From positions 1 through 64,000 of the forward strand of contig JAKQDD010000134.1 in NCBI GenBank assembly GCA_029556615.1: a stretch of DNA of 64,000 bases, read 5' to 3'. Of this stretch, positions 31,954 through 54,189 are shown one piece after another. The position numbers were made by a program, and so were the translations under genes. Position 1 is the stretch's first letter, and every line of letters starts with the position of its first letter. The stretch is from Verrucomicrobiota bacterium. Its GTDB lineage: Bacteria; Verrucomicrobiota; Verrucomicrobiia; Limisphaerales; J093. Under the pieces are notes generated by a model that was given only the letters and a program-made list of their open reading frames with translations, was not told the DNA's origin and did not search any database.

Positions 31954-31957
31954 CGGT

Positions 31958-33335: not shown

Positions 33336-33338
33336 GAG

Positions 33339-36061: not shown

Positions 36062-36067
36062 GGCGGG

Positions 36068-37093: not shown

Positions 37094-37127
37094 AGAAGTG
37101 TGGTGCTGAGTGGTGTTGGGTCAGGGT

Positions 37128-37553: not shown

Positions 37554-37584
37554 AGGTCATGACTTTCTTGCAGGAGCGGGAACG

Positions 37585-38412
37585 TTACGCTTCACGCGCC
37601 AATCGGCGGGCTACCGCCTTGGCGTAATCGAGGTCTCCGAGGGCATCCACCAACCCCTGGCGCTTGGCTTGGTGTCCGTCGAACACCTGGCCTTGCATGG
37701 CATCGTCGGGAACCCCTTCGCGGGCGCGCAAGACATCGGCGCGGAACACGTCGAAGGACCGCTGCGCCTGCCGGGTGAACTCGGCGGCGTGGTCTTCGCT
37801 GATCGGCGCGCCCGACATCCCCGCCGCTTTGAAGGTCCCCTCCTTGTTCGTGAACACCTTCACTTCGATGCCGGCATTGGCCAGCATCCGGTGGAAGTCC
37901 ACCACCGACACGTAAGCCCCGATGCTGCCCACCATCGCGCTCCGGGTGGCCACGACGGCGGACGCTTGGGAACCGATCCAGTAGGCCAGGGAGCACATCA
38001 TGCCCCCGACCCAGGACACGGTGGGCTTGGCCGATTTGAAGACCGCATCGGCGATCTCCGCGCCGCCGACCGAGAATCCGCCGGGCGAGTTGACGTTCAG
38101 AATGATGGCCTTGGCTTCCGGGTCGGTTTCTAGGCGGCGGAAAGCGGACAGCACTTCGGCGCTGTCCTCGAACCCGTCGAAGAACATCTCCCCCAGGTCG
38201 GGCCGGTAGGCCAACACGCCGCTGACTTCGAGGACCCCGATTCCGTTCTCGACCATAGCGCGGGGCGCCAATGCCTGACGCGCCTTGCGCCAGGATTCGG
38301 GTTCGCCCGCAGCCGGCTGAAGAACTCCGCGCAGCAACGCTTGCGCCGCTCGGACTTCAATCAGCGGCACCTGCGTCGCCAGCATCGTCAGAAGACTTTT
38401 CTGCATCGTCAC
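37585..38412 (-). CDS. S49/SppA-like phage prohead protease
   Basis: AIILNVNSPGGFSVGGAEIADAVFKS...AMVGSIGAYVSVVDFHRMLANAGIEVKVFTNKEGTFKAAG. Confidence 0.9.
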   Translation of the reverse strand: MTMQKSLLTMLATQVPLIEVRAAQALLRGVLQPAAGEPESWRKARQALAPRAMVENGIGVLEVSGVLAYRPDLGEMFFDGFEDSAEVLSAFRRLETDPEAKAIILNVNSPGGFSVGGAEIADAVFKSAKPTVSWVGGMMCSLAYWIGSQASAVVATRSAMVGSIGAYVSVVDFHRMLANAGIEVKVFTNKEGTFKAAGMSGAPISEDHAAEFTRQAQRSFDVFRADVLRAREGVPDDAMQGQVFDGHQAKRQGLVDALGDLDYAKAVARRLAREA

Positions 38413-39928
38413 TGGAGTCGGGAACGTTACGCTTCATTTTGTTTTCGCCCTCCGCCGCAGCCCCTTTCGCCGACGCCAGACCGAAGCTCGCCATGACCGT
38501 TTCGATGGGGATGCCGTGCTCCTGGGCGACCGCCTTGGCGCGGTCCAGGATGTAGTCGATTTCCTCGAAGACCTGGTCGGTCTCCCGCCGCCAGGATCGC
38601 CCACGGTTGCCGTAGTGGTCCCGACGACTCATCAGACCCCGTGCCACATCTTCGCGCTCCTGGGCCATCTCCCGCCCGGCGTCGATGGTGATCTTGGACG
38701 GGCCGATGAAGTCGCACCGCGCCCAACCGTCGGTGCTGGGGAGCGCCCCGGACGTGATGGCGCTGGCAATCACCCGCTGCCAAGCGGAACGCCCCAACCG
38801 GGCGGCCACCTGCTTGCGGCGGTCGAACTTCCGCTGGGCCTTGCCGTTGACCGCCCGCTGGTTGGGACCAGTCAACTTCTCATCGAGGAAGAAGGCCGGC
38901 GGCAGGCCCATCCCCGCCACGAAGCAACCCGCCAGGTAGCTGATGACTTCGATGTTATTGGCCGGGGCACTCGGCGTATTGACCTGCTTCAACTCGTGGC
39001 CTTCCGGCACCGTCGGGATGTCGCCCGCAACCAGGTCGGCCACCGTAAAGCCGCGCTGCTTGGCGTTGGTCTCGGCGGGCGGTTCTTCTTCGGTCGAGGC
39101 TTCCCCGGAAGGTTCGGGCGGACTGCCCCACGGGTTTTCTTCCAGCGGCGCACCTTGGATGGCGAGGGTAAGGACGGTGGACAATTTCGAGAGGACCTTT
39201 TGAAAGCCCTTGATGTCGTTCCCGTCCCGCATGTCATTCGCCCCGCGGCGAATCGGACTCATGCCCCGGTACTGGGTGTACCGTTCTAAATCGAACAGGT
39301 GAACCAGCGCGTTGGCGTCGAGGAAAGTCTGGCCGTCCAGCCAGTAGCCAAGGACCCGCCCCTGTGTGTCGAGCTGGATGCCGTCGAAGATGCGGTCATC
39401 CGCCACCGTGGGCTTCTCGATGCGCCAGGACTCCAGAAGCTGGATCTGCGGGAAGCCGGCCTCATCGGTCCACAACGCGAACACTTCGCCGTCGGTGTCC
39501 AGGTAGAACGACCCCAGCCGTTGCAGGTCCCAGAAATCAAACCGCCCCGTGAAATCGGCGCGGTCGGCCCAGTCATCGAAGAGGCTGTTGGCGGCTTCAT
39601 TCCACTTCCGGTCGAGCGTCGCCGCCCGTGGGATCATGGGCGTCGAGTAGTTGGCGACCAGGTCGGTGGCGTAGAACACCAAGCCGACGTTGTCCCAAAG
39701 GTAGCGGGCGACACTCGCCAATTGCAGCCGGTTGAACTTGGACAGCAGCCGGTGGACGTAGAGGCCCGTGGCCGGGATCGGCGTCCGGTGGTCCACAACG
39801 TTCAATGCCTCGAAATAGTGCCGGACGGGCGTGACGGCGGGGGCGGTGTTAGCCACTTGCGGCGAGCGGTTGTTGGATGGCCGCTTCGGCGGTGGCGTGG
39901 GGAACAGGCGGCGCAGGAAGGGAATCAC
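38357..39928 (-). CDS. Phage portal protein (lambda family)
   Basis: KWNEAANSLFDDWADRADFTGRFDFWDLQRL...FFLDEKLTGPNQRAVNGKAQRKFDRRKQ. Confidence 0.85.
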   Translation of the reverse strand: MIPFLRRLFPTPPPKRPSNNRSPQVANTAPAVTPVRHYFEALNVVDHRTPIPATGLYVHRLLSKFNRLQLASVARYLWDNVGLVFYATDLVANYSTPMIPRAATLDRKWNEAANSLFDDWADRADFTGRFDFWDLQRLGSFYLDTDGEVFALWTDEAGFPQIQLLESWRIEKPTVADDRIFDGIQLDTQGRVLGYWLDGQTFLDANALVHLFDLERYTQYRGMSPIRRGANDMRDGNDIKGFQKVLSKLSTVLTLAIQGAPLEENPWGSPPEPSGEASTEEEPPAETNAKQRGFTVADLVAGDIPTVPEGHELKQVNTPSAPANNIEVISYLAGCFVAGMGLPPAFFLDEKLTGPNQRAVNGKAQRKFDRRKQVAARLGRSAWQRVIASAITSGALPSTDGWARCDFIGPSKITIDAGREMAQEREDVARGLMSRRDHYGNRGRSWRRETDQVFEEIDYILDRAKAVAQEHGIPIETVMASFGLASAKGAAAEGENKMKRNVPDSSDDAEKSSDDAGDAGAAD

Positions 39929-40263
39929 AGGACAGCCTTGTGGAATGTGGGGTGGAGGCGGTTGTAGCGGGGCACGTCGAGCGGCGGGTTCTCCGGGTCG
40001 GCGAGGGTGTTGACCCACTCCAACGACTCTTCCGCCATCACGGCGAGTTCGGCGGGGGTGTAGGCGCGGTCGAAGGTGAACGTAACCGACCCGCCCGCCT
40101 CCGCCGCGGTCAGGACCGTCTGGCCGTTGACCACGTTGGCGGCCCACTTCTGAGTCACCAGCGCTTCCAGGGCGCTGACCAGGGTGGCCCCTTCGGTCAG
40201 TTGCAGCTTGAGCGCCCGGACCAGCATCCGGACTTCCAGTCTTGGACGTGCCGTCACGCCCAA
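39925..40263 (-). CDS. Small head-tail joining (gpW-position) protein
   Basis: Immediately upstream of portal, stop overlaps portal GTG start. Confidence 0.45.
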   Translation of the reverse strand: MGVTARPRLEVRMLVRALKLQLTEGATLVSALEALVTQKWAANVVNGQTVLTAAEAGGSVTFTFDRAYTPAELAVMAEESLEWVNTLADPENPPLDVPRYNRLHPTFHKAVL

Positions 40264-40323
40264 GCGGGAACGTTACGCTTCAACACTACCCTACAGGCGG
40301 ATGGCGTGCTGATCATTCTCGAC

Positions 40324-40980
40324 ATGGCGACTCCAAATGGTGACCTTCTCGAAGGGGCAAAGACGTGCGGCGGACCACAAAGTCTTAAGCCCGGAAAGGC
40401 TATCGCGATGTTCGATCCCAGAGCAGACTTGTTCTTTGAGGACCCTCGAAATCCCAGGCGCCCGCCGGGGATGCTTGGCGTACTGTACCTGTTGCGGCAG
40501 GATGTTCTGCGTTGTCTCATGCCAGACCCCACGGGCAACAGCATTTTTGGGCGTTCCGCACTATGGCCTGGCGGCATGGCTATTCTCGCGGGTATTGACC
40601 TCTTGGGTAAGTTCTACGCAGGTGACGATACCATCGGTCAGGTCGGACAGAGGTTCACGAGTTTCATCAGGAAGTACCTCCAACCACTCTCGCCAGGCGA
40701 TGAGGATGTGCTCTATCAGCTTCGGAATTCGCTTCTCCACTCCTTCGGGCTCTATTCGAGTGCGCGCGCACAGACGTATCATTTCATGCTAACAGGAAAG
40801 GGAGGTGTGCCGTTCATTCAGCAGCCTAGGACGACTTTCTATCAGGTGGACCTCATCGTGCTGCATGAGCGCTTTGAACGCGCCATAGTAAGCTACGTGA
40901 ATGACTTGGAGGCAGACCCGAACCTCCAAACCAAGTTCTTGACCATGTTCCCGAACTACGGGGCAATCGAGATCACATGA
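40324..40980 (+). CDS. Cargo (moron) protein with HEPN-type RNxxxH motif
   Basis: Opposite strand inside late operon; LYQLRNSLLHSFGLYS contains R-N-x3-H. Confidence 0.5.
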   Translation: MATPNGDLLEGAKTCGGPQSLKPGKAIAMFDPRADLFFEDPRNPRRPPGMLGVLYLLRQDVLRCLMPDPTGNSIFGRSALWPGGMAILAGIDLLGKFYAGDDTIGQVGQRFTSFIRKYLQPLSPGDEDVLYQLRNSLLHSFGLYSSARAQTYHFMLTGKGGVPFIQQPRTTFYQVDLIVLHERFERAIVSYVNDLEADPNLQTKFLTMFPNYGAIEIT

Positions 40981-41031
40981 GGGATGACGAGATCATGTGG
41001 GAAAGCAGACGCTACAAGAAATTCGGTGCAT

Positions 41032-42855
41032 TCAGCAGTTCAGCGGTTCTTCATGCCTTTCGGGCGTGTGTTCAGGAGTCGCCTTCAGGCACCCCGAAAT
41101 GACTGCCGCCGCGTCGATCATCAGTTCGCAATCCAGGTAGTGGTTGTCCCGCCGCTTCTGAACCCACAGCACCTTGATCCGCCCCCGCGCATCTTCACGC
41201 TCTTCCCTGACCTCCGCCGTCACCTGGTCGATATAGTCCCGCCCGGTCTTCTTCGGAATGCTCCACTGGCCGACCACGCCGTGCGTGAACAGGGCCAGGT
41301 GATCCTTCAGGCTGGGATTCGACCACTGGAAGAGCGGCAGGTGACGGCGCACCCGCGCCCGGCGCGTCCCCAAGCTCGGATCGACCAGCACGCGGCGCCA
41401 CACCCGGCGCACGGTCTTTCCGCTGCGCGGGTCCTGGCTCAGGAACCACTCGGCGTCATCCCCCTTCATCGCCTTCCAGCCCGTCGCGAGGCAGAACCGG
41501 TACACTTCCGAGGCTTTGAAGCCTGTGTCGATCATCGCGTTGACCACCGGCACGTTTAGTTGGCGGCGAACTTCCTCGAGTTCTGAGGTCGTGTTGCAGC
41601 GACCGTAACCGATCAGCCGGCTCGCCCCGCCCGGTCCGAAGGCCCGCGCCACCCAGAAGTAATGTTCGCCGCCGCGTGCCTGGCGGTCCGCTGCCAGGAA
41701 GCGAGTCTTCTCCAACGGCCACGGATCGCCGAAGTCGTAGTCCCCTTTGCGCTGCTGCACGTAGTCATCGCTCGTGATCAGCCACCGGTCGAGGTCCCAA
41801 GGCTCGCCCAGCGTTTCGGTGACAAAGGTGAACATCGGCTCGATGTCCCCCTCGATCCTCATGGCGTCCACTGCGGCCAGGAACTCCTCGACGATGGACC
41901 GCCACTCGATCCAATGCGGCAGCAGCGCGTTCCAGGTGTAGCTGACCTTGGACTTCGGGGCGTTGGGATTCTGCGGCACGAAGCGTCCGTGGTTCTCGAT
42001 CCACCGACGGTCCACGGGCGTGTCTTTGATCCGTTGCCCGCAGCCGACGCACTCGAACCGGATCGTCTCGGCCAGGGCGTCGAACCGCCACTTGCCCTCG
42101 GGTTTGGTGGTGTCGTTCGAATCCCACTTCAGTTGCTCGAATGCGAGCGGCTGAAGTCGCTGGCAGGCCGGGCATTCGAAGTGCCAGACCCGCTGGTCCC
42201 CAGCGCGGTAGGCGGTGTCCATCGCGTCGCCCTTGGTGCCCGGCGTCGAAATGAGGAACCGGCGCGAGTTCCAGAAGGACCGCGTCCGCTTCAGGACCAT
42301 TTCCAGTCGCCCCGGCGGGTAGTTGCGCACTTCATCGCAGAAGAGCCACCGGATGGGTTTGGACTGGAGCCGGGCCTTCGACCCGGACCATCCTGCGTAG
42401 AAGGGCATCCCGTCGAAGGCGAACCCGGTCAGCGTCGGTTCCGCCATCCGTTCCTTGACCGGGCGGCAGGTCTCGAATGTCGGCGTCAGCCGGTCGCGGA
42501 GGAAGTCCCGGAGTTCATCCTTGGTGGCCGTCACCCACATGGCGGGGCCGGGGTCTTCCGCAATCGCCCAACACGCACAGTTCATGACGGTCTGGGTCTT
42601 CGCGCTCTGGGCGGCGCACTGGACGGCGATGTCCCGAACGCTGTTGTTGGCGAAATCCTCCATGACGGCGCGAACCCAGGGCGACGCATCCGAACGCCAC
42701 CGGCCCGGTAGGGGCGAAGTTTCATCGACGTGGACGTGTTCTTCGCACCACTGCCACGGAGGACGGCGGTCGGCTGGCTTGCAGGCGGCGCAGAAGCCTT
42801 CGATGAGCGGGTGTCGCGACTTTCCCACGCCCGAAGGCGGAACGTTACGCTTCAA
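41032..42855 (-). CDS. Phage terminase large subunit, GpA family
   Basis: VQCAAQSAKTQTVMNCACWAIAEDPGPAMWVTATKDELRDFLRDRL...WLFCDEVRNYP...ECPACQRLQPL/ECVGCGQRI zinc-binding. Confidence 0.9.
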   Translation of the reverse strand: MKRNVPPSGVGKSRHPLIEGFCAACKPADRRPPWQWCEEHVHVDETSPLPGRWRSDASPWVRAVMEDFANNSVRDIAVQCAAQSAKTQTVMNCACWAIAEDPGPAMWVTATKDELRDFLRDRLTPTFETCRPVKERMAEPTLTGFAFDGMPFYAGWSGSKARLQSKPIRWLFCDEVRNYPPGRLEMVLKRTRSFWNSRRFLISTPGTKGDAMDTAYRAGDQRVWHFECPACQRLQPLAFEQLKWDSNDTTKPEGKWRFDALAETIRFECVGCGQRIKDTPVDRRWIENHGRFVPQNPNAPKSKVSYTWNALLPHWIEWRSIVEEFLAAVDAMRIEGDIEPMFTFVTETLGEPWDLDRWLITSDDYVQQRKGDYDFGDPWPLEKTRFLAADRQARGGEHYFWVARAFGPGGASRLIGYGRCNTTSELEEVRRQLNVPVVNAMIDTGFKASEVYRFCLATGWKAMKGDDAEWFLSQDPRSGKTVRRVWRRVLVDPSLGTRRARVRRHLPLFQWSNPSLKDHLALFTHGVVGQWSIPKKTGRDYIDQVTAEVREEREDARGRIKVLWVQKRRDNHYLDCELMIDAAAVISGCLKATPEHTPERHEEPLNC

Positions 42856-42952
42856 GGCGCGGGTAGTAGCCTACCGCTGGCCGGGCGGTTCCGGCGCGTC
42901 TCGCACCGGTTCTCGCCGTTTCTCGCGGCGGTTCTCGAAGCCGTTCGACCAC

Positions 42953-42982
42953 GAAAAAGGCCCCTCAGTCGCCCGAGGGGCC
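42953..42982 (-). terminator. Rho-independent terminator
   Basis: Minus strand GGCCCCTC-GGGCGACT-GAGGGGCC-TTTTTC. Confidence 0.75.
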
Positions 42983-43004
42983 GTGTCGTCGGCGAGGTCG
43001 CCGC

Positions 43005-43349
43005 CTACTTCGCCGCCATGAGGTCGAAGGCCCGCCGGAAGAACCGTGCCCGGCCCGTAATCCGGCGCACGATCTTCACCGCCTGCGCGTCGGCGACTTT
43101 GAAGGCCGCGCCGAGTTCCTTGGCGATGTCCTCTTTCTCCTTCCCGCTCAGGAACAGGAACGTCACCAGCCCGCTCTTGCTCTCCTTCAGTTCCTCGACC
43201 GTGGCGGGCAGCCGGTCCGCCGGTTCCTCATCCTTCTCGACCTTCGCCGCCGGTTCCTTCCTGGCCTTCGCCGTTTTCGGGGCCGGGGCCGGGGTCGGGG
43301 TTTGGGTCTTCGCCGTCTGTTCTTTCTTCGCTTCTTTGTTGTTTTTCAT
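43005..43349 (-). CDS. Phage protein, unknown
   Basis: 114 aa, Lys/Ala/Pro-rich N-terminus. Confidence 0.4.
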   Translation of the reverse strand: MKNNKEAKKEQTAKTQTPTPAPAPKTAKARKEPAAKVEKDEEPADRLPATVEELKESKSGLVTFLFLSGKEKEDIAKELGAAFKVADAQAVKIVRRITGRARFFRRAFDLMAAK

Positions 43350-43633
43350 TGTGTGCTCCGTTCTTTGTTTTGTTGTTGTTCCGCACCGATCGTGAGGCTC
43401 GCTACGGTGGAGCGGTGAGAGTGTCCAAGGGAATCCATGGAAATCTTGTCCCCGGCCTCGCCGGCCCAGGGCGACGCGGACTCATGCAATTCGAGGGAAG
43501 CCGGGGCGACGGTCTGAAGTCGTCGGGCGACCTCGACCGCGCCGCGCTTATAGACGCAGAGGCAGACCAGTTCCCCCGCCGTATCGCGGACCGCCCAGAA
43601 CCGCCCGTGCTTGGTGATGGTGAAGGCGTTCAT
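43346..43633 (-). CDS. Phage hypothetical protein
   Basis: Overlapping phage-operon ORF MNAFTITKHGRFWAVRDTAGELVCLCVYKRGAVEVARRL. Confidence 0.5.
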   Translation of the reverse strand: MNAFTITKHGRFWAVRDTAGELVCLCVYKRGAVEVARRLQTVAPASLELHESASPWAGEAGDKISMDSLGHSHRSTVASLTIGAEQQQNKERSTQ

Positions 43634-44064
43634 GAGAGCGGGATGAAGCCTTGGTTGTGCTCTTGGATGGCGCGGTCATAGGCCGCTTCGATGACGCCTT
43701 GCAGCGTGTCGCAGTACACATCCCGCTGGCAGGCCAGGACCATCGACCCCGGCTGCCGTTGGCGATGCGCTTCGACCAGCCACACCGTGTAAACGTCATT
43801 GGGTTCATAGGCGATGATCAGCGTCCACACGTGGCCGCGCTTCCCGTTGACCCGGCATTGCAGGCCAACCTCGTAGTCCACGAAGCCTTGGCCGCCCTCG
43901 GACACCAGCCGGGAAGGCCGACTTGACCGGTATTCGCCGTGGGGTTCGGCACATCGGTAGGTGAAGGCGCTTGCACCGACGTAAACGAAAGCGCCCCGCA
44001 ATCCCAGGCCGCCCGCTTGCGCGATGATCGCCTGGACCGTCTCAGGTAATGATTCAGTTTTCAT
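43630..44064 (-). CDS. Phage hypothetical protein
   Basis: 144 aa, overlapping phage-operon ORF. Confidence 0.45.
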   Translation of the reverse strand: MKTESLPETVQAIIAQAGGLGLRGAFVYVGASAFTYRCAEPHGEYRSSRPSRLVSEGGQGFVDYEVGLQCRVNGKRGHVWTLIIAYEPNDVYTVWLVEAHRQRQPGSMVLACQRDVYCDTLQGVIEAAYDRAIQEHNQGFIPLS

Positions 44065-44109
44065 CGGCTAGCCTCGTAAAGGGCGCGCCGGTGAAAGGTC
44101 CAGTGTCGA

Positions 44110-44751
44110 TCAATCCGCCTGCTGCCACGCGTTCAGCCGCTCATCCAGCGTGTGCAACTGCTTTAGGATGTCATCCTCTTCTTCCTTCAACCGCGCTTCG
44201 ATCACGGCGACCGTCTGGCCTTCCAGAGACGGGGCCGTGCGGTGAACCCGCGTCACGACCTTGCGAATGGCCGCGCCCAGTTCCGCCCCCAGGTGCGTGA
44301 CTTCCTCGACCGGTATCAGCTCGCGCTTCAACTGCCGCAGTTCGACCTTCAGCTTGGCGTTCTGCAAGACGACGTGCTGGGCGCGTTCCTGGTCGTAGTT
44401 GACCAGCGTCCGGTCGGGCGACGCGAACAGCCATCGCAACAGCGCGGCGAGATACACCCGGCTGCCGCGAAACGCGGAGCAGCCGTTGCGCTTGGCGTGC
44501 TTGATGGTCGAGACGGGAATGCCGGTCGCGGCGGCGCAGGCTCCGATGCTGTCATAGGCATCCTGCATGACCCGCGACTGCTCGCGCTCGCGGTAGTAAC
44601 GCAGCAGGCCCTGGATTGTGGGGACAAGCTCGTAATGGCCCTCCACGGCCTTCGGGAACCAGCCCTCGACTGCCAGCTCGCGCAGCCGGCGGTCGGTCAA
44701 GCCCGAGAGCCTGGCGAGTTGGGCAATGGCGATGGTGCCGGTGTCGGCCAT
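44110..44751 (-). CDS. Terminase small subunit-like (Nu1/DUF1441-like HTH)
   Basis: IAIAQLARLSGLTDRRLRELAVEGWFPKAVEGHYELVPTIQGLLRYYRERE. Confidence 0.65.
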   Translation of the reverse strand: MADTGTIAIAQLARLSGLTDRRLRELAVEGWFPKAVEGHYELVPTIQGLLRYYREREQSRVMQDAYDSIGACAAATGIPVSTIKHAKRNGCSAFRGSRVYLAALLRWLFASPDRTLVNYDQERAQHVVLQNAKLKVELRQLKRELIPVEEVTHLGAELGAAIRKVVTRVHRTAPSLEGQTVAVIEARLKEEEDDILKQLHTLDERLNAWQQAD

Positions 44752-44753
44752 GA

Positions 44754-45422
44754 TTACCGCTCCGGGGCTGCGAGGATCCAACCGATGAACTCGCCGACCT
44801 GGAAGAAGGTCCGCGCCGCCTTCGGCAGCATCAGCGGATCGAGCGGGCGCTGATAACCAGCCAGGGAGAGTTCCTTGCGCAGGATGTCATCAGGCTTCGC
44901 ACCCACGGCGAGCTTCTGTTGCAGCGTCAGGCGGCTGAACGCGGTCCCTACATAGCCCGGCGGCATTTGGACCTTGTCCACGATCAGTAGTGCCCCGCCC
45001 GGCTTGGTCAAACCCTGCAACCGCCGCAGGAATGACGCCCGCGTGTCCACCGGCAAGAACATCAGCACCAGGAAGCAGACCGCGAAATCGAAGGGCTTGT
45101 AGTCGTACGACACCGCATCGGCCACGACCAGTTGCGGCGGTCCTTCATACCGGTCGGCCATTTCGCGGCTCTCTTCGACGGCGAAGAATCGCGCCTGTCG
45201 CTGGATGAGCGTTTCCTTGAGGGCCAGGCCGATGTTCCCCGTCGAGGCGCCGATGTCGTACACGACACCGTTGCGCGGAATGTAGTGCCGACCGAAATGG
45301 GCCACCGCGTTCGTCGCGAGGTCATACCACGGAAGCGACTCGCGCACGTGCTGGTCGAAGTGCTTCGCCACCGCACGACTGCGGAAGGTCCAGTGCTGGG
45401 GGATTTCAAGTGAGGATTTCAT
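44754..45422 (-). CDS. CmoA-like class I SAM-dependent enzyme (candidate carboxy-SAM synthase)
   Basis: VVYDIGASTGNIGLALKETL...FFAVEESREMADRY...FDFAVCFLVLMFLPVDTRASFLRRLQGLTKPGGALLIVDK follows the CmoA layout; overlaps the upstream MTase by 17 bp. Confidence 0.7.
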   Translation of the reverse strand: MKSSLEIPQHWTFRSRAVAKHFDQHVRESLPWYDLATNAVAHFGRHYIPRNGVVYDIGASTGNIGLALKETLIQRQARFFAVEESREMADRYEGPPQLVVADAVSYDYKPFDFAVCFLVLMFLPVDTRASFLRRLQGLTKPGGALLIVDKVQMPPGYVGTAFSRLTLQQKLAVGAKPDDILRKELSLAGYQRPLDPLMLPKAARTFFQVGEFIGWILAAPER

Positions 45423-46854
45423 CGCGGATGTTTGTAGCGATTGCCGCCATCATTACTGGGGGCACGGCCCGCCCAAGCCGCTCCCACTGCTGCGAATACG
45501 TGCCAGTCAGAATGAAGTCATCGGGGAAGGCGCAGATGCGCTTCAACTCGGCGATGGTGAGCTTCCGCTTCTCCGTCGGGTGCGTGACGCTCGCCACCCC
45601 TGGATGCCCGTGCGCCGCGCAGATCGTCGGGCACGGATGATCGGGATGCGGTCGCACCAAGTTGAAGTATTTGTCCGACGCCTGGCCGGGCTTCAGTTTA
45701 TCCCACTCGCGAGCGATGGCGTAACCGGACATGTCCACCTCGAACTGGTTCGGCTTGGTCCCCAGGATCGTCGGGCACGGTTGGTCGAGGTCATACTCGC
45801 GCCCCTTCTCATCGAACGCCGCGCCCGTCCCGCCCTTCAATCGCGCTTCGACCAGCATGGATTGCGTTTGCGTCGCCAGGACGGCGGGCGCTGGCCCGTC
45901 GGTCAAGTCTTTGCCTTCGGCCCACCCGTTGCCCTGTGGTCCCTGGATCACCTTCGCCTCGACCAGTTCGAGGCCCTGATGACTGGTAGCGGCGTTGTAG
46001 GCCCGCCCCGCACTGACGGTGGGACTGGGAGCGTCCGCCGATTTCCATGCCGGGCCGTACTTCCCGCGCACGACCCACGGCAACGCCTCGCGCAAGCTGT
46101 AGCGGTAGGGCAGCGGCTTCGGGAACACGGGGTCCTTGCCCAGGTCTTCGCGCACGCCAATGAAGATGGTCCGTTGCCGGGCCTGGGGAACCCCGAGCCA
46201 CTGGGCATCGAGGACCTTGCAGCCCACCCGGTAGCCACACGCCTTCAGCCTGGCCAGGATTTCGAGGAAGTAACCCTTGGCCACACCTTTCACCAACCCG
46301 CTGACGTTCTCCGCCACGAAGGCGCGAGGGCGCAACCCTTCGAGCAGTCGCACGTACTCGAAGAAAAGGTCATCCACTCGCTGGACTGTGTCGGAGTATT
46401 TCTTCGCCTTGCCCCAGTGCTTCTCGCGCTTGCCGGCGGTGCTGAAGCTGGCGCAGGGCGGCGACCCATCCAGCAGATCGAGTTCGCCGACCTTCAGTCC
46501 GACCGCCTCGAGGATTTCGGCGGGCTGAACCTTCCGAATGTCCCGCGTGTCGAGGATCGTGTCCGGGTGGTTGGCCCGGTACACATCCGCCGCCGCCGGG
46601 ATGAACTCGCTCGCCCACGCCACACGGAAGCCGGCCATCCGGTATCCGAGACAGGACCCACCGCAACCGCTGAACGTCGAGATGACGCGCAGACCGTTGT
46701 GGGGCACGGCAGCGATCTCCGCCATGCTGGGGACGCGGTAGGGTGGTTTGTCAGTCTTCACGGCAGAAGTTGAGGATGGCGCGGGCGACGACCGACGCGC
46801 CGCACCAGCGCTGGTCATATCGGTGTTGGATTTCGACTTCGCGGTCCGCATCAA
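45406..46854 (-). CDS. C5-cytosine DNA methyltransferase with Arg in motif X
   Basis: Motif I ISTFSGCGGSCLGYRMAGF, IV GSPPCASFSTAGKR, VI FVAENVSGLV, VIII QARQRTIFIGVR, X RLGRAVPPVMMAAIATNI. Confidence 0.92.
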   Translation of the reverse strand: MMRTAKSKSNTDMTSAGAARRSSPAPSSTSAVKTDKPPYRVPSMAEIAAVPHNGLRVISTFSGCGGSCLGYRMAGFRVAWASEFIPAAADVYRANHPDTILDTRDIRKVQPAEILEAVGLKVGELDLLDGSPPCASFSTAGKREKHWGKAKKYSDTVQRVDDLFFEYVRLLEGLRPRAFVAENVSGLVKGVAKGYFLEILARLKACGYRVGCKVLDAQWLGVPQARQRTIFIGVREDLGKDPVFPKPLPYRYSLREALPWVVRGKYGPAWKSADAPSPTVSAGRAYNAATSHQGLELVEAKVIQGPQGNGWAEGKDLTDGPAPAVLATQTQSMLVEARLKGGTGAAFDEKGREYDLDQPCPTILGTKPNQFEVDMSGYAIAREWDKLKPGQASDKYFNLVRPHPDHPCPTICAAHGHPGVASVTHPTEKRKLTIAELKRICAFPDDFILTGTYSQQWERLGRAVPPVMMAAIATNIRDEILT

Positions 46855-47041
46855 AGGCGGGAAGTCCGGCCCGCGCCTTCAATGCCTGCGCTTGGTGCGA
46901 CAGGCACATCCGGCAAACCAGTAGTCCGGCCAGCGCGTCGTCGATGCCGTCGATAGCATGGCGCAGCGTCTGAAGGTCGGTGTTGGGCTTCGGCGCACTC
47001 ACGACGGCTTGCCACTCCACCGGTAGGCGCATTTTGGACAC
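46751..47041 (-). CDS. AroQ-type chorismate mutase-like protein
   Basis: LQTLRHAIDGIDDALAGLLVCRMCLSHQAQALKARAGLPAFDADREVEIQHRY matches the AroQ helix 1 pattern LR..ID.ID..L..LL..R and downstream K...G....D..RE. Confidence 0.82.
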   Translation of the reverse strand: MSKMRLPVEWQAVVSAPKPNTDLQTLRHAIDGIDDALAGLLVCRMCLSHQAQALKARAGLPAFDADREVEIQHRYDQRWCGASVVARAILNFCRED

Positions 47042-47574
47042 TGGAACTCGGTCGGCAGATTTTCATCGACGGCGGTGAAGTCCTCCGGTGGCGTCGGTTC
47101 GGGTGGGTCGGCCAGCAAGCCCGCCAGCGCGTTCGCATCGAACCCGGCCAGGTCGAGGTCGAAGTCCGCCGCCTTCAATTCGCCCAGGACTTCCTTCAAC
47201 GCGGCGCTGTCCGCTTCGGCTAGCTCCGCCAGCCGGTTGTCGGCGATCAGGTGCGCCCACTCATCGGCGTCGGTGGCGAAGTCCTGGAAGTCCACAGGCA
47301 CTTGGGTCAGTCCGAGGACCTTCGCCGCTTCATAGCGCCCGTGGCCCGACACAATGAAGCCCGACCGCTTCGACACCACAATGGGCGAGCGCCACCCTTG
47401 GTGGGCGATCACCTTCGCGAGCAAGGCCACCTGCGCCTGCGGGTGTTGGTTCGGGTTGCGGGGGTTCGGGACCAGCTTTTCGAGCGGGACCAGTTCATCG
47501 AAGGCGCAATTCACCGCCGGCCCCGAGGCGTCTGGCGGAACTTCTGCGCGTTTTTTGGGTTTTCGTTCGTTCAT
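46999..47574 (-). CDS. ParB-like nuclease-domain protein with C-terminal CxxC knuckle
   Basis: LVPLEKLVPNPRNPNQHPQAQVALLAKVIAHQGWRSPIVVSKRSGFIVSGHGRYEAAKVLGLTQVPV; ends CPKCAYRWSGKPS. Confidence 0.85.
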   Translation of the reverse strand: MNERKPKKRAEVPPDASGPAVNCAFDELVPLEKLVPNPRNPNQHPQAQVALLAKVIAHQGWRSPIVVSKRSGFIVSGHGRYEAAKVLGLTQVPVDFQDFATDADEWAHLIADNRLAELAEADSAALKEVLGELKAADFDLDLAGFDANALAGLLADPPEPTPPEDFTAVDENLPTEFQCPKCAYRWSGKPS

Positions 47575-47692
47575 GTGCGTTGTCGGCGCTGGCGCCATAC
47601 CTGCTGGCCACCGGGGGTAGGCAAAAGATTCCTTTCCCAACCCCTCTGCGGGGGCGGCGGTTCGGCCAGCGCTGTTCTCTGGGCGGTCTCGA

Positions 47693-48289
47693 TCATTCTC
47701 TGCCGGTTCTCGTGCGTTGCGACGGCGCGACAGTGGCGACACCGCCACCGGGTTGCCGCGGCGTGCTCTCGCACTGCGAGGCACCTGCCGTTCTGCCCCG
47801 GTTCGGGCCGGCCTGCTGCCGTTCACCCGAAGCGGGAACGTTACGCTTCAACTTGGATTTGGCCTTCCTGCCGCGAAGGACGGGCGTGCGATGGCGCAGC
47901 CAATTCCAGGCATGGCGCTGGCCCCGGTTGCGCCAGCGCAGCAGGCGGCTGTAGTAGCCGGTGTAGTTGGCCAGCGCGGCGATCCGCACGCCGCAGCGGC
48001 GAGCGAGCCTGCGGATGGACGGGTTGCCCTCGAAGTAGGCGGGACTCAGGACCCAGGCCAACGCGATCAGGCGCAAGCCGAGGGATTCGGGCTGGATGCG
48101 GCGACTGGACAATGGCAGGAGCATCTGGAGCAGGCGGATTACAGTCTGGGATAGCCGCTGGTCATTGTCCCCGCTGCTCGCGTCCTCATTCAGCCGCTGG
48201 TAGAGCGCCTGCCAGTCGAAGCCCTGGTCGGGGGCGTCGAGCGGGTCGCGGTTGTCCGCCATGAAATCCTCATCGAACTCTTCCTTCAC
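47693..48289 (-). CDS. Phage hypothetical protein
   Basis: 198 aa ORF overlapping the upstream gene; contains a boundary-motif copy. Confidence 0.45.
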   Translation of the reverse strand: MKEEFDEDFMADNRDPLDAPDQGFDWQALYQRLNEDASSGDNDQRLSQTVIRLLQMLLPLSSRRIQPESLGLRLIALAWVLSPAYFEGNPSIRRLARRCGVRIAALANYTGYYSRLLRWRNRGQRHAWNWLRHRTPVLRGRKAKSKLKRNVPASGERQQAGPNRGRTAGASQCESTPRQPGGGVATVAPSQRTRTGRE

Positions 48290-48675
48290 GTCGCATCCTC
48301 CTTGGGTTGGAAGTCCACCCGCGTCAGAACTTGGACGCGGGGTTGCCAGATCAGTTGCTTGCCACCGCGCTGCGCCTTCACCTTTCGCCAGGCCCAGAGT
48401 TCAAGCGCGGTGCCCGGCGTGCTCAGCCAGTCCAGGCATTCTTGCGCCCGCTCTTCGGTCAGTTTGCGGAAGTGGCCGGCGAAGTCCTGCCCGGTGCACT
48501 GGACGCCCACGACGCCGCGCTGCGGATCGAGGGCGAGCACGTCGATGATGCCGAACAAGTCTTGCCGGATGCCGTGCGGACCACCGTACGGGTTCCACTT
48601 CTCGACGATGGCGCAGACCAGGCCCTGTTCGCGTAACGCCCGAAGCGTCCGTTGGGTAGGTGAAAGGCCCTTCAT
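48286..48675 (-). CDS. Candidate small PD-(D/E)XK/VRR-like nuclease
   Basis: GIRQDLFGIIDVLALDPQRGVVGVQCTGQDFAGHFRKL resembles D...(D/E/Q)xK-type cores. Confidence 0.5.
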   Translation of the reverse strand: MKGLSPTQRTLRALREQGLVCAIVEKWNPYGGPHGIRQDLFGIIDVLALDPQRGVVGVQCTGQDFAGHFRKLTEERAQECLDWLSTPGTALELWAWRKVKAQRGGKQLIWQPRVQVLTRVDFQPKEDAT

Positions 48676-48695
48676 TGCACGCCTCCCTCGGCATT

Positions 48696-48740
48696 GGGCA
48701 GAAATACCCGCGCCCCCTTTAGGGGGCGGGTTTTCTGCCC
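48696..48740. other. Long near-perfect hairpin in phage intergenic region
   Basis: GGGCAGAAATACCCGCGCCCCCTTTAGGGGGCGGGTTTTCTGCCC. Confidence 0.8.
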
Positions 48741-48814
48741 ATCAAATTCCTGACTGCCCATAGCGGGCATGGGGACAAGAGTTAAACGTCTGCCGTTCTG
48801 TGTGTTACGCATGG

Positions 48815-50065
48815 TCAATTATCCTCCGAAAGGGTTTCTGCCCAGTTGCCCGTCCAGTCATGAGTGGGCAAATGATTGTTGCCCATAGCCTTTCCCTTCT
48901 CGGTCAGGACGTAGAGCTTCTGCTTCCCCTTGATGGTGAACCTGATCCAACCGTTGCTGAGGGCGTTCTCGATCAGAGTGCGAACCGTCCCGTCCGAGCA
49001 GCCCAACACCTGACTGCCCATCGCCCGGTAGGTCCTCTGGCTCTGTCCTTCATTGGCGGCGATGCAGTGGAGAATCTCGACGGGATGAGTTTTTCGCCTA
49101 CGCCCCGGCCCACTGTCCGCGAGCAGTTCCTCGACTTCCGCTGGATCGGCCTTCCGCCAGCAGATGACGCCGACATCCCGGTGATGGGCGATGAATTGGG
49201 TGACGGTCGGCTGCTTGTCGTCATCCTCCCACCGCAACCGTTTTCCACGCTTCGGCGCACGCAGCTCGAACACAGAGTCTGAACCAATGGACCGGAGCGC
49301 GAGCGCCGCCCGCGCCGGATTGATCCATTCCGCTGACCCCGCGCCGAGGTAGGCGTAGTCCCCGGCTTCCCAGTTGTCCTTTTCCTTCCCGCGAAGCGGC
49401 TTGTTGGTGTGGTGCGCCAGGATCATCCCGACCTGGTGCCGGTGCAGGAGCGGATTCAAGAGTTCGCGCATGAACCGGCTTACATCCTTCTGGCTATTGC
49501 TGTCCCCGCCCAGGTAGGCGAAGGCCGGGTCCACCATCACCAGGTCGAAGGGACCGTGTTCGGTCAGGAGCGCGTCGAGGGTCAGGGCGAACTTGTCGCT
49601 GCTCCGGTCGTTGACCGTGCAGACCATGATCCGGCTCGACGCCTGCGCCTTCTCCGCGGGTGTCAGTTCGCAGCCGGCCAGGACGCCATCGCGCATCTCG
49701 GCCAGGTCCCCTTCGTCATTCTCCGCTTGGATCAGCAGGATGCGCATCCCGCGCTCGCGGTAGGCCGTCCCCGGCGTGATGCCGAAGAGGGCCTTACCCA
49801 GGGCGAAGTGAATGGCCAGTTGCATCAGCAGGGATGACTTGCCCACCCCAGTCGGTCCAAGCAGCAGGCAGACACCGCCCCGGTAGAGGAAGCGGTGCAT
49901 GATCAGTTCACTCGGATCATTCTCCGCCGGGGGCGTGCGCAGGTCATCGAGCACCCGCACCACGGGCAGGGCCTCGATCTTGACCACTTCCTTCTCGACG
50001 TTCTCCGCGTCGGTAGCGGGCAGGAAGCCGGACAGTAGATGGTTCAGCGGGGAGGCTTCAGACAT
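48815..50065 (-). CDS. RepA/RecA-like AAA ATPase (phage replicative helicase-like)
   Basis: GGVCLLLGPTGVGKSSLLMQLAIHFALG Walker A; FDLVMVDPAFAYLGGDSNSQKDVSRFM Walker B; GMILAHHTNKP. Confidence 0.85.
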   Translation of the reverse strand: MSEASPLNHLLSGFLPATDAENVEKEVVKIEALPVVRVLDDLRTPPAENDPSELIMHRFLYRGGVCLLLGPTGVGKSSLLMQLAIHFALGKALFGITPGTAYRERGMRILLIQAENDEGDLAEMRDGVLAGCELTPAEKAQASSRIMVCTVNDRSSDKFALTLDALLTEHGPFDLVMVDPAFAYLGGDSNSQKDVSRFMRELLNPLLHRHQVGMILAHHTNKPLRGKEKDNWEAGDYAYLGAGSAEWINPARAALALRSIGSDSVFELRAPKRGKRLRWEDDDKQPTVTQFIAHHRDVGVICWRKADPAEVEELLADSGPGRRRKTHPVEILHCIAANEGQSQRTYRAMGSQVLGCSDGTVRTLIENALSNGWIRFTIKGKQKLYVLTEKGKAMGNNHLPTHDWTGNWAETLSEDN

Positions 50066-50948
50066 AGGCGGCCTCTGGGTTGAAGTAGAGGACATGCTGG
50101 CGCGCCGCAGGAACGCCTTCGACCACGCGCAGGCCACCGGGCATCCGCAGCCAGCCGCAGATGTCCCAGCGCGTCGGGTCTGCGCCCAGCAGACAGGCGA
50201 CGCAGAAAAACCGGACTTGGTCGCGGGCGTTGTGGCGGTCCACGCGGAACCACCCGTGCAGGCTCTTGCCGCCGGAATCGACCACCAGGACCAGCGGGAT
50301 GAACGTCGCCAACTGGGTGATGAGCCGAGCCTGCTGCGCCTTGGTCAGGTTCGGATCGTCGAACTCGGCAACCAGGTGCCGGCGCAGGCCGGTGTTGTTC
50401 TGGCAGCGGGGCGAGGGCTTGCCCCGGTAGTTCAGCGCGGAGCGTTCCCGCATCGGATTGACCACGATGAACTGAAGCCAGTCCGCGTCGGCGAGGGTTT
50501 CCTCGAGGGGCCGGACCATTGCCCGCTCGGTGTTACGGCCCGAACAGATCAGTTCACCGGGACGGAAGAGGCGTGGCAGGACATCGCTCGCAGCCAAGCC
50601 CGCATCGCGTTCGACATCGAAGGCGGGCGCCACGTCGGCGAGGACCTTGGCAATGAGCGCCGGGTTGGGTTCCGGCCAATCGACCGGATGCCGACCGAAG
50701 TTGACCTGCGCCGCCGGGCGACCCGCATAGGCGAGCTCGACAGCCCCTTCGATCTCGGCGTCAGGCACGGGGCGATGGACCACGAAGTCATCGCAGCACC
50801 GGCGCAGGAAAGCGAAGGACTGCTCGGCGCTGAGTAAGTGACGCAGGCCGCTGGCAACCTGGGCCAGCCAACGATGAGTTCCGCCGGGACCGGGCATAGC
50901 CCGCAGGCGTTCGGCGGTTCGATGGGAAAAGGGGTAGAGCAGAGCCAT
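50058..50948 (-). CDS. Archaeo-eukaryotic primase-like protein
   Basis: VLVVDSGGKSLHGWFRVD motif seen in phage AEP-like primases; adjacent to RepA-like ATPase. Confidence 0.65.
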   Translation of the reverse strand: MALLYPFSHRTAERLRAMPGPGGTHRWLAQVASGLRHLLSAEQSFAFLRRCCDDFVVHRPVPDAEIEGAVELAYAGRPAAQVNFGRHPVDWPEPNPALIAKVLADVAPAFDVERDAGLAASDVLPRLFRPGELICSGRNTERAMVRPLEETLADADWLQFIVVNPMRERSALNYRGKPSPRCQNNTGLRRHLVAEFDDPNLTKAQQARLITQLATFIPLVLVVDSGGKSLHGWFRVDRHNARDQVRFFCVACLLGADPTRWDICGWLRMPGGLRVVEGVPAARQHVLYFNPEAAYV

Positions 50949-50954
50949 AGGGGG

Positions 50955-52787
50955 TCACTTCGCGTAGAAGGGCATCAACTTGCCCTCGACCTTCAGCGGA
51001 AGGTGAGGTGCCCAGAGGACGGGCGTTTCCATGATGGCGATGATCTGGGCGAGGTCCTGGTCGGCGCTCGCTTCGGGCAACTCGAACACGAGTTCATCGT
51101 GGACGCTCAGGACGGGCACGAAGCCCGCCTGGGCGCACCTGAGCCACGCCGACGCCAAAACATCCCGTGCTGTCGCCTGCGTCCAGTTCTCGGCGATCAG
51201 CCCTCCGTACACGTGCATGCGTTCGCCGGCCACCGTGGCGGTGGTGTCATCCTTCGAGACCACCACGTCGCGGTAAAACAGGAACCGCTTCAGCGCCGGG
51301 TTGTGTTGCATACAGGGGAGCGGCAGAGCGTAGCGGCGGCCGTCGCACACCGCGCAGGCGTCTTGCAGTCGGTTCCAAAGGTCCACGACCAGCGGGTTGG
51401 ATCGGCGGAAGTCCTCGACGATGCCCTTGGATTCATCTTCACCCAGTTCGAGGCCGGCCATCACGCGGGCTACGTCGATGAACTTGCGCCAGCCGCAGCC
51501 GAAACCCAGGCCCAGGACGCGAGCCTTGGCCAGTTGCCGCAGGTTTGACCCTGTCCGGTCACACCACGCTTTGAGTGATTCCGATTCTGCGTAGCCCATC
51601 GTGCGCCGGGCGTGAATTTCATAGGCGTCGGCGTTCGGGTTGTCGCGGAACAGGGCGAGGGCCTCGGTGTCACCGGCCAGGTAGAGCAGCACCCGGTTCT
51701 CGATCTGGCTATAATCGGCGACGGCGAGAACGTGCCCAGGCGGGGCGATGATGGCGCGGCGCAGGTCCACTCCCTCGGCGGTCTTCCGGTTCAAGTTCTG
51801 GAGGTTCAGCCCGCCACCACCCGACCACCGGCCCGTGCTGGCTCCGAAATACTTCAGTTCATACGCCATCCGCCCCGTGGGCATCCGGCGGGCTTCCATC
51901 GACTCCAGTACCTTCGCCGTGCGGTTGGCGGACCGGACCCGCTGCATGTGCCGGACCCAGGTAGCGGCGTCCGAGTCGAGGTGCTTCTTGAGCCACCTCG
52001 CGAAGCCGGGGTCGGCGTTCGACGTGGAAGGCGGCGCGGGCACGCCGATCCGTTCGCAGGCCGCCTCGAACTGCTTGACCGAGGTGGCCGGCTTCCAGGG
52101 CAAGGCGTCGGCGATGCTGCCGGCCAGGTCTTCCAGTTCGAGTCGCTTGGCACGGACATACTCCCAGTCAACGGCGAGGCCGTGCCGACCCATTTCGGAG
52201 GTCAGATCGAAGAGGCGGCGCTCGTGCGCTGGCCAATGCCGCTCCAGGTGATTCCATAGGGCCAGGCTCGCCAATGCGTCTCGACCGGCATAGCGGCTGA
52301 TCTCGACGGCAAGGAAGCAGTCTTCAGTAGGATGCCGACCCTTGGCCCGGTCGCGGGGGCCTTTGTCGAGTGTCTCGCCGAACACCGCCTTGACCGCGCC
52401 CGCCAAGTCTCGCGGCATTTGCAGATAAGCGCACAGGGCCGCACTACAGACCCAGGTCGCCGCCGTCGCCGACGCGGCAGGGATCGTGCCCAGTTCCTGG
52501 AGCCGCTCGAACACGGCGCGGTCGAAGTCTCGATGGTGGCTGACCCACGTCCGCCCCGCGATGGTCGCCCATGGGAACTTCGACGGCGCGCAGACGCAGG
52601 TCCGCTCGCCGTCAGTCACGGCCGCCAGGTACGCCTGAAAGCGAGGGTCGTGGCAGTAGGCCCACAGGCCGAGTTCGGCGACCGAGTAGGTAGCGGTATA
52701 AAACGTCTCGAAATCGACCGCGACCGTGCCGCCGCACTCCGCCTGCGCCCACGCTTCCGGCGTGATCATGTTCGGCTCGGGAATCAT
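50955..52787 (-). CDS. Family A DNA polymerase (phage PolA)
   Basis: VDFETFYTATYSVAELG exo motif; LNLQNLNRKTAEGVDLRRAIIAPPGHVLAVADYSQIENRVLLYLAGD motif A; LSVHDELVFELPE motif C. Confidence 0.95.
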   Translation of the reverse strand: MIPEPNMITPEAWAQAECGGTVAVDFETFYTATYSVAELGLWAYCHDPRFQAYLAAVTDGERTCVCAPSKFPWATIAGRTWVSHHRDFDRAVFERLQELGTIPAASATAATWVCSAALCAYLQMPRDLAGAVKAVFGETLDKGPRDRAKGRHPTEDCFLAVEISRYAGRDALASLALWNHLERHWPAHERRLFDLTSEMGRHGLAVDWEYVRAKRLELEDLAGSIADALPWKPATSVKQFEAACERIGVPAPPSTSNADPGFARWLKKHLDSDAATWVRHMQRVRSANRTAKVLESMEARRMPTGRMAYELKYFGASTGRWSGGGGLNLQNLNRKTAEGVDLRRAIIAPPGHVLAVADYSQIENRVLLYLAGDTEALALFRDNPNADAYEIHARRTMGYAESESLKAWCDRTGSNLRQLAKARVLGLGFGCGWRKFIDVARVMAGLELGEDESKGIVEDFRRSNPLVVDLWNRLQDACAVCDGRRYALPLPCMQHNPALKRFLFYRDVVVSKDDTTATVAGERMHVYGGLIAENWTQATARDVLASAWLRCAQAGFVPVLSVHDELVFELPEASADQDLAQIIAIMETPVLWAPHLPLKVEGKLMPFYAK

Positions 52788-53587
52788 GCCGGCGTTTGCT
52801 GTCGGGGGTCATAACCTTTGATGTAGCGCCAGAGCGCGGCGACCATGCGGAACGCCTGCCAGTCACGCGGAACGTCGGGATGCTTGACCACCACGACGCG
52901 GCCCGGTTCGGTGGTCGAGATGAAGATGTTGGCGGCGAGCAACCGGCCTACGCTCTCCTCGCCCCAGTACGTGGCGCCGTAAGCCGCGAGCTGCATCGCC
53001 TGGTTGTCATAGGCCACGACCTCCTCACCCGGCCTGGTCTTGCGCGTCTTGTAATCGAGGATGCCGATGCCGGTGCGGCCGTAGCGGAAGAGCACGTCGG
53101 CGGTGCCCGCGAAGCCGTGCTGCTTGTTCACCAGCTTGACTTCGCGGTCGATGATTTCGATGCCGACTTCCTGCCGCCACTTCAGCACCGGCTCGACGTA
53201 AGGCCGCAGGTCATCGGCGTATGGTTCGCCCGCCATCGCCAGTTCGAGCGCACCATGAATCATGGTGCCGAGGTCGGCGGCTTCCTCGACCTGCTCGAAG
53301 GCCGCGTTCCGCACGCGGTTGCACCAGTACTCTTCGGACTCGTCTGAGGTTTTGGGCGTGCGCAGCGACGCAATCGCGACTTGGTCGAGCTTCCACTTCT
53401 CCAGACCCGGCCTGGCGAGGACGCCGAGGATGCTCGTCACGCTGGGGTAGAGTCCCAGGCGCTTGGCGTCCTTTACCGTGGTTGGACGTTCGCCGCGACC
53501 GTCAGCGGTCGGCAACTTGTGAACGGGAGTCCCGTCGAGCCGATACCAGTGACCCGACGGGACCTTCGATTTGGAGAGAACGGCCAT
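52784..53587 (-). CDS. PD-(D/E)XK exonuclease (Cas4/RecB-like)
   Basis: GTMIHGALE...GFAGTADVLFRYGRTGIGILDYKTRK. Confidence 0.88.
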   Translation of the reverse strand: MAVLSKSKVPSGHWYRLDGTPVHKLPTADGRGERPTTVKDAKRLGLYPSVTSILGVLARPGLEKWKLDQVAIASLRTPKTSDESEEYWCNRVRNAAFEQVEEAADLGTMIHGALELAMAGEPYADDLRPYVEPVLKWRQEVGIEIIDREVKLVNKQHGFAGTADVLFRYGRTGIGILDYKTRKTRPGEEVVAYDNQAMQLAAYGATYWGEESVGRLLAANIFISTTEPGRVVVVKHPDVPRDWQAFRMVAALWRYIKGYDPRQQTPA

Positions 53588-53589
53588 AC

Positions 53590-54159: not shown

Positions 54160-54189
54160 AGTGGTCTTGTTCCTTTCGGGTTGAGGGTT

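What the first reader, a model, noticed from the sequence alone, without database searches (positions are those of the whole stretch)
44754..47041. Candidate natural DNA carboxymethylation system: chorismate mutase + CmoA-like enzyme + C5 DNA methyltransferase in one coupled phage cassette
Seen: three consecutive, overlapping minus-strand genes encode an AroQ-type chorismate mutase (46751-47041), a C5-cytosine DNA methyltransferase (45406-46854), and a CmoA-like SAM-dependent enzyme (44754-45422), between ParB-like and terminase genes. Established: chorismate mutase converts chorismate to prephenate, and CmoA converts prephenate plus SAM to carboxy-S-adenosyl-methionine (Cx-SAM), normally for tRNA cmo5U. 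Inference: the phage makes its own prephenate and Cx-SAM and the C5 enzyme transfers carboxymethyl to cytosine, giving 5-carboxymethylcytosine (5cxmC) as an anti-restriction modification. I know 5cxmC only as an engineered DNA product, so a natural pathway would be new.
Basis: partly seen in the sequence, partly recalled or inferred. Interest (0 to 1): 0.97.

Follow-up and report, generated by a model that had tools for sequence, protein, structure and literature searches.

The report
Phage DNA-carboxymethylation cassette with chorismate mutase
A Verrucomicrobia prophage carries the enzymes of a recently published DNA modification (5-carboxymethylcytosine) and, wedged into the same operon, its own chorismate mutase, which probably makes the prephenate the pathway needs; the modification is already known, the built-in precursor supply appears to be new.

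Summary
The three genes are real. The window's C5 enzyme is a CmoX relative. Its best PDB match is CmoX itself (8YF3, E 2.7e-66), and it has the diagnostic Arg where ordinary C5-methyltransferases have Asn. The CmoA-like protein is a divergent phage CmoA.

The new part is the chorismate mutase, an 83-aa AroQ protein (46751-47002) that starts on the ParB stop codon and ends on the CmoX start. Six catalytic-site residues are invariant in 18 intact copies; median dN/dS is 0.25. It was gained once at the ParB/CmoX junction in a Verrucomicrobia (Pedosphaerales) prophage clade, lost at least twice, and occurs six times in this genome. It is absent from all other CmoA phages checked. The host's only other chorismate mutases are fused to prephenate-consuming enzymes, and no non-prophage CmoA was detected. 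Best reading: a self-supplied prephenate-to-Cx-SAM-to-5cxmC pathway. Yang et al. left prephenate supply open. Nothing was tested biochemically. No CmoY-type ligase was found in the prophage.

The parts
46751..47002 (-).
   Evidence: PF01817 36.5 bits; conserved GTGA junction; AlphaFold pLDDT 93, Foldseek top 24 hits nearly all labelled chorismate mutase or DAHPS-CM complex; dN/dS 0.25
46838..46963 (-). span holding the six invariant catalytic-site residues (E. coli CM R11, R28, K39, D48, R51, E52 = codons starting 46963, 46912, 46879, 46852, 46843, 46840)
   Evidence: alignments of 11, 18 and 17 copies; coordinates
45406..46761 (-).
   Evidence: best PDB match 8YF3 = SpCmoX, E 2.7e-66; start conserved
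46453..46455 (-). codon of the catalytic Cys of the SPPC motif
   Evidence: motif described in PMC12783734
45469..45471 (-). codon of the Arg equivalent to SpCmoX Arg350 (binds the Cx-SAM carboxymethyl group; Asn in ordinary C5-MTases)
   Evidence: alignment, survey, coordinates
44754..45422 (-). phage CmoA-like carboxy-SAM synthase, 222 aa
   Evidence: phrog_4752 1.4e-42, TIGR00740 1e-12, PDB 4gek 5.9e-9, fold nearest to CmoA 1im8/4iwn/4gek
46999..47826 (-). ParB N-terminal-domain protein, translationally coupled upstream gene
   Evidence: PF02195 at cut-off, phrog_620 1e-37; ParBc neighbours of CmoX reported in PMC12783734
44110..44781 (-). terminase small subunit, next gene downstream
   Evidence: phrog_57 6.9e-16
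41032..42855 (-). terminase large subunit
   Evidence: PF05876/PF20454, phrog_15
22720..54423 (-). approximate extent of the tailed prophage (tail, tape measure, major head, protease, portal, terminase, cassette, DNA polymerase A)

Best explanation
This is a CmoA-CmoX DNA carboxymethylation module of a tailed prophage of Verrucomicrobia (Pedosphaerales) that has added its own precursor enzyme. The stand-alone AroQ chorismate mutase turns host chorismate into free prephenate. The CmoA-like enzyme uses prephenate and SAM to make Cx-SAM. The CmoX-like enzyme transfers the carboxymethyl group to C5 of cytosine in phage DNA, giving 5cxmC, probably as protection against restriction. Shown here: gene anatomy, families, diagnostic Arg and Cys, invariant mutase catalytic-site residues, conserved coupling, single gain and later losses in the clade. 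Shown elsewhere for homologues: SpCmoA makes Cx-SAM and SpCmoX makes 5cxmC. Inferred: the activity of these proteins, that the mutase feeds CmoA, and the anti-restriction role.
For: CmoX-like protein: best PDB hit 8YF3; Arg with SPPC in all 99 ORFs in which both motifs could be read, counts including repeat fetches. Published biochemistry of homologues (PMC12783734). CmoA fold and family. Mutase: Pfam, fold, six invariant catalytic-site residues, dN/dS 0.25. Mutase placed exactly between ParB and CmoX with both coupling overlaps, whereas copies without it have ParB directly coupled to CmoX. Every close relative of this mutase found lies in the cassette; one gain, two later losses. The host's own chorismate mutases are fused to prephenate dehydratase+ACT and to prephenate dehydrogenase, and the only CmoA-family hits in the genome are the six prophage copies.
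Against: No biochemistry on these proteins. The CmoA-like protein scores far below the TIGR00740 cut-off and has Glu at the E. coli Arg199 position, although validated SpCmoA has Glu there too. Most CmoA/CmoX phages do without a mutase, so host prephenate often suffices. The mutase lacks the C-terminal extension that carries Gln88 in the E. coli enzyme (own alignment).
Confidence: 0.75

Rival explanations
1. The module makes 5cxmC (or a derivative), but the chorismate mutase serves another purpose, such as redirecting host chorismate to phenylalanine/tyrosine during infection as an ordinary auxiliary metabolic gene.
For: Stand-alone phage chorismate mutases without CmoA/CmoX nearby exist (Morganella phage Rgz1 L344, huge phage LR756508 L346). 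A rumen virome paper lists the gene as an aromatic amino acid AMG.
Against: In this clade the gene sits only inside the CmoX/CmoA operon with overlapping start and stop codons, and no close relative was found outside it. Prephenate is the known co-substrate of CmoA (PMC12783734).
Confidence: 0.15
2. The C5 enzyme is an ordinary 5-methylcytosine methyltransferase and the CmoA-like protein an ordinary methyltransferase; the neighbourhood is coincidental.
For: PF00145 and generic Methyltransf_11/25 domains match; no Arg at the E. coli CmoA Arg199 position.
Against: Arg at the CmoX Arg350 position; SpCmoX accepts only Cx-SAM according to PMC12783734; closest solved structure is CmoX; fold of the partner is nearest to CmoA; CmoA-CmoX pairs are widespread (PMC12783734).
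Confidence: 0.05
3. 5cxmC is only an intermediate: an unrecognised ligase of the prophage or host attaches an amine, as CmoY does with glycine in phage S-B43. (Compatible with the best explanation; it concerns the end product.)
For: CmoY homologues accompany many CmoX genes (PMC12783734; 64 of 264 loci here); many prophage genes here have no assigned function.
Against: No Asn_synthase domain on the window's contig; no ligase domain among the prophage genes scanned against Pfam; no SpCmoY match in the cassette clade.
Confidence: 0.2
4. The mutase protein is no longer a free enzyme but a structural or regulatory partner, like chorismate-mutase domains attached to or complexed with DAHP synthase.
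For: Nearest folds are the short Mycobacterium/Corynebacterium mutases solved in complex with DAHP synthase; short C-terminus.
Against: All six catalytic-site residues checked are invariant under purifying selection.
Confidence: 0.1

Closest known systems
CmoA-CmoX-CmoY 5cxmC / 5gcxmC system of Synechococcus phage S-B43 (PMC12783734)
   Same: CmoA homologue plus C5-MTase homologue with SPPC and the Cx-SAM-binding Arg; ParB-domain neighbours as reported for many contigs
   Different: Here a chorismate mutase is part of the operon and no CmoY-type ligase was found; host lineage is Verrucomicrobia; gene order differs (ParB-CM-CmoX-CmoA versus CmoA-CmoY-CmoX)
Moraxella phage Mcat8 ParB-CmoX-CmoA cassette (L063)
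   Same: Same order ParB-CmoX-CmoA upstream of a terminase gene; CmoA 44% identical
   Different: No chorismate mutase anywhere in the phage record; all three genes annotated only as hypothetical proteins
Short AroQ chorismate mutases of Mycobacterium tuberculosis / Corynebacterium (2w1a, 5mpv, 5hud)
   Same: Three-helix AroQ fold, about 80-90 aa
   Different: Those bacterial enzymes serve aromatic amino acid synthesis in complex with DAHP synthase; this one is phage-borne beside CmoA/CmoX
Bacterial tRNA CmoA (E. coli)
   Same: Fold and family
   Different: Pairs with CmoB on tRNA; the Arg199 position is Glu here
Engineered M.MpeI N374K carboxymethyltransferase
   Same: A basic residue replaces the conserved Asn so that Cx-SAM is accepted (described in PMC12783734)
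   Different: Laboratory mutant; here the Arg is natural

Membership tests
CmoX (DNA cytosine C5-carboxymethyltransferase) | C5-MTase fold with catalytic SPPC motif | tested here: met
   PF00145 3.8e-54; SPPC, Cys codon at 46453-46455
CmoX (DNA cytosine C5-carboxymethyltransferase) | Arg at the SpCmoX R350 position (Asn304 of HhaI) | tested here: met
   GRMVPP/GRAVPP aligned to 8YF3; Arg in all 99 relatives with both motifs readable
CmoX (DNA cytosine C5-carboxymethyltransferase) | CmoA encoded nearby | tested here: met
   cmoA directly downstream, ORFs overlap 17 nt
CmoX (DNA cytosine C5-carboxymethyltransferase) | uses Cx-SAM and forms 5cxmC | not testable with these tools
   needs LC-MS
CmoA (carboxy-SAM synthase) | CmoA fold and family | tested here: met
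   phrog_4752 1.4e-42; Foldseek top hits 1im8, 4iwn, 4gek
CmoA (carboxy-SAM synthase) | curated TIGR00740 cut-off (193 bits) | tested here: not met
   48 bits
CmoA (carboxy-SAM synthase) | Arg199 salt bridge to the carboxylate (E. coli, PMC3663124) | tested here: not met
   Glu184 at that column; validated SpCmoA also has Glu, so the feature does not define phage CmoA
CmoA (carboxy-SAM synthase) | Glu/Asp at the E. coli Glu164 position | tested here: met
   Asp149 by alignment; PMC3663124 says only Glu or Asp occurs there
CmoA (carboxy-SAM synthase) | converts SAM and prephenate to Cx-SAM | not testable with these tools
   needs enzyme assay
AroQ chorismate mutase | CM_2 profile above cut-off and three-helix AroQ fold | tested here: met
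   36.5 vs 27 bits; helices 6-44, 52-65, 70-82; top folds are chorismate mutases
AroQ chorismate mutase | active-site residues R11, R28, K39, D48, R51, E52 (E. coli numbering, residue list from own knowledge) | tested here: met
   invariant in all 18 intact copies
AroQ chorismate mutase | Gln88-type contact from the C-terminal helix | tested here: not met
   protein ends before that position (own alignment); short bacterial AroQ enzymes are its nearest folds
CmoY ligase branch (5gcxmC) | asparagine-synthetase-like ligase in the neighbourhood | tested here: not met
   no PF00733 on the window's contig C9; no SpCmoY match in the cassette loci

The most novel reading that the evidence does not exclude
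A phage DNA-modification operon that carries its own primary-metabolism branch-point enzyme: phage chorismate mutase makes free prephenate for phage CmoA, so DNA carboxymethylation does not depend on the host's prephenate pool, in a host whose own chorismate mutases are fused to prephenate-consuming enzymes.
Probability: 0.7. Interest if true: 0.62.

Novelty: new variant of a known kind. Interest (0 to 1): 0.55.

Why it matters
Yang et al. left open where phages get prephenate for Cx-SAM. This clade suggests one answer, and it is directly testable: phages with and without the mutase exist as close relatives. It would also be a clear case of a supposed auxiliary metabolic gene whose job is DNA modification rather than host metabolism, and a warning for virome surveys that list chorismate mutase, asparagine synthase and DNMT1 as separate metabolic genes.

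Tried and rejected
Treating natural 5cxmC as new: rejected, published. The 104-nt CM/CmoX overlap: start-choice artefact. A general association of chorismate mutase with phage CmoA: rejected; PF01817 in 5 of 49 whole records, all five close relatives of the window phage, in 0 of 49 others, and in no other of the 264 viral CmoA loci in hand, checked with a home-made profile over flanks only. A CmoY ligase in the prophage: none found. tblastn of the mutase against named phages: no match; generic chorismate mutases gave a few unrelated phage or host-like hits without CmoA/CmoX in the stretches fetched. Arg199 as a test of Cx-SAM synthesis: not usable, since validated SpCmoA lacks it.

Full report
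Observation. The three ORFs are present on the minus strand as described. Pfam puts 46751-47041 in CM_2 (36.5 bits, cut-off 27) and 45406-46854 in DNA_methylase (3.8e-54); 44754-45422 hits generic methyltransferase domains and, more specifically, phrog_4752 (1.4e-42) and the CmoA profile TIGR00740 (1e-12, below its cut-off). Around them lie a ParB-domain gene upstream and TerS and TerL downstream; tail, head and polymerase genes place the cassette in a tailed prophage of roughly 22.7-54.4 kb.

Gene starts. Relatives show that the mutase starts with GTG at 47002, whose last bases form the ParB stop (GTGA), and that CmoX starts with GTG at 46761, 11 nt before the end of the mutase gene; both junctions are conserved in the intact copies of the main group (the divergent copy L158 has ATGA at the first junction and a longer C-terminus). 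In relatives without the mutase, the CmoX start sits directly on the ParB stop. The mutase is thus a clean insertion that kept translational coupling on both sides.

The C5 enzyme. The closest solved structure is 8YF3 (E 2.7e-66), which is SpCmoX of Synechococcus phage S-B43, a DNA cytosine C5-carboxymethyltransferase (PMC12783734). The SpCmoX residue that binds the carboxymethyl group, Arg350, replaces the Asn of ordinary C5-methyltransferases. The window protein has Arg there (GRAVPP; codon 45469-45471) and the SPPC motif (Cys codon 46453-46455). All 99 ORFs in which both motifs could be read have the same pair; this count includes repeat fetches of some loci, and 14 fragments or very divergent ORFs could not be read at one or both motifs. 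This argues strongly for Cx-SAM use rather than ordinary methylation.

The CmoA-like protein. PDB sequence matches are E. coli and Haemophilus CmoA; the AlphaFold model (pLDDT 85.5) is closest to CmoA structures 1im8, 4iwn and 4gek (TM 0.80-0.84), with guanidine methyltransferases such as CysG(N-16) next. E. coli Arg199, described as the carboxylate salt bridge (PMC3663124), is Glu184 here. SpCmoA, shown to be an active Cx-SAM synthase, has Glu at the same column (the E. coli sequence there was typed in and agrees with the 4gek alignment). Asp149 aligns with Glu164, where only Glu or Asp is reported. Membership is therefore likely but rests on fold, family and context.

The mutase. The AlphaFold model (pLDDT 93.3) has the three AroQ helices, and the best Foldseek matches are chorismate mutases or DAHP synthase-chorismate mutase complexes, led by the short Mycobacterium enzyme; single-chain E-values are weak (best 0.012) but probabilities are near 1. 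Positions equal to E. coli R11, R28, K39, D48, R51 and E52 are invariant in 18 intact copies, and median pairwise dN/dS is 0.25. The protein ends before the position of Gln88. It is under purifying selection and probably catalytic.

Distribution. The window genome (7.2 Mb; a Verrucomicrobia subdivision 3 / Pedosphaerales relative, since G227 of the same order carries a contig of the same length and cassette as UBA6082 DIXK01000067) holds six copies of the cassette with the mutase. Scans with the mutase profile found nine close relatives in other Verrucomicrobia genome contigs and five in viral contigs, all in the same ParB-CM-CmoX-CmoA position; more distant hits are bacterial mutases without CmoA/CmoX nearby. 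Within the clade, seven cassettes lack it (L002, L007, L008, L009, L157, L350, L351). A tree of CmoA+CmoX, built before L350 and L351 were fetched, needs three changes, most simply one gain and two losses. Outside the clade, PF01817 was absent from 49 further records and a home-made profile found it in no other of the 264 viral CmoA loci. Many of these are fragments, so absence is not proof.

Host. The host's own chorismate mutases are fused to prephenate dehydratase+ACT and to prephenate dehydrogenase, and the only CmoA-family hits in the genome are the six prophage copies (the assembly is incomplete). A free mutase could therefore provide prephenate that the host would otherwise consume or regulate; that is inference.

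What is known. Natural 5cxmC, the CmoA-CmoX pair, the CmoY ligase and ParB neighbours were published on 7 December 2025 (PMC12783734). That paper's main text does not contain the word chorismate and says prephenate availability needs further investigation; its supplements were not read. Only this paper was found for natural carboxymethylcytosine in the held library; papers and preprints outside that library were not searched.

Conclusion. The modification system is a new member of the published kind. The built-in chorismate mutase makes it a new variant. The supply role is the best-supported reading, about 0.75, and rests on anatomy, conservation and pathway logic, not on assays.

Noticed in passing
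G000 contigs C9, C33, C148, C176, C240, C241: One bacterial genome carries six related copies of the cassette (CmoA 86-100% identical), suggesting heavy polylysogeny by related phages; FR_27 (JAOSKK) also has several copies.
   Followed up: partly
L163, L166, L167: Decayed prophage copies in the FR_27 genome: CmoX is broken into several frames in L163 and L167, and the mutase reading frame is broken in L166 and L167.
   Followed up: partly
window 56535-63968: Type I restriction genes (HsdR 57242-60829, specificity subunit 62349-63968), a YgjP-like metallopeptidase and a DUF6932 protein lie just beyond the prophage.
   Followed up: no
L344:5851-6929: Morganella phage vB_MmoM_Rgz1 (Straboviridae) has a chorismate-mutase-like gene overlapping a gene annotated 'putative deoxycytidylate', near an arabinose 5-phosphate isomerase; no CmoA/CmoX in the stretch, and the R51/E52 motif is not evident.
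   Followed up: partly
L346:14959-15249: A 484-kb uncultured phage (LR756508) encodes a stand-alone chorismate mutase of about 90 aa with no CmoA/CmoX in the 30 kb read.
   Followed up: partly
L151:4983-9263: On Paenibacillus polymyxa plasmid pSC2 a TnpB gene lies between two genes annotated as cytosine methyltransferases next to a CmoA homologue, perhaps an insertion in a CmoX gene.
   Followed up: no
L148:4082-8687: Azospirillum plasmid p7 carries ParB-CmoX-CmoA with an IS256 element between CmoX and CmoA.
   Followed up: no
L005:4729-6014: CmoX is split into two overlapping frames in this viral contig, either a real frameshift or a sequencing error.
   Followed up: no
PMC10465536: A rumen virome survey lists chorismate mutase, asparagine synthase and DNMT1 as separate phage metabolic or defence genes; these might be CM, CmoY and CmoX of such modules.
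   Followed up: no
window 19190-20056: ARMT1-like damage-control phosphatase domain gene on the bacterial side of the window.
   Followed up: no
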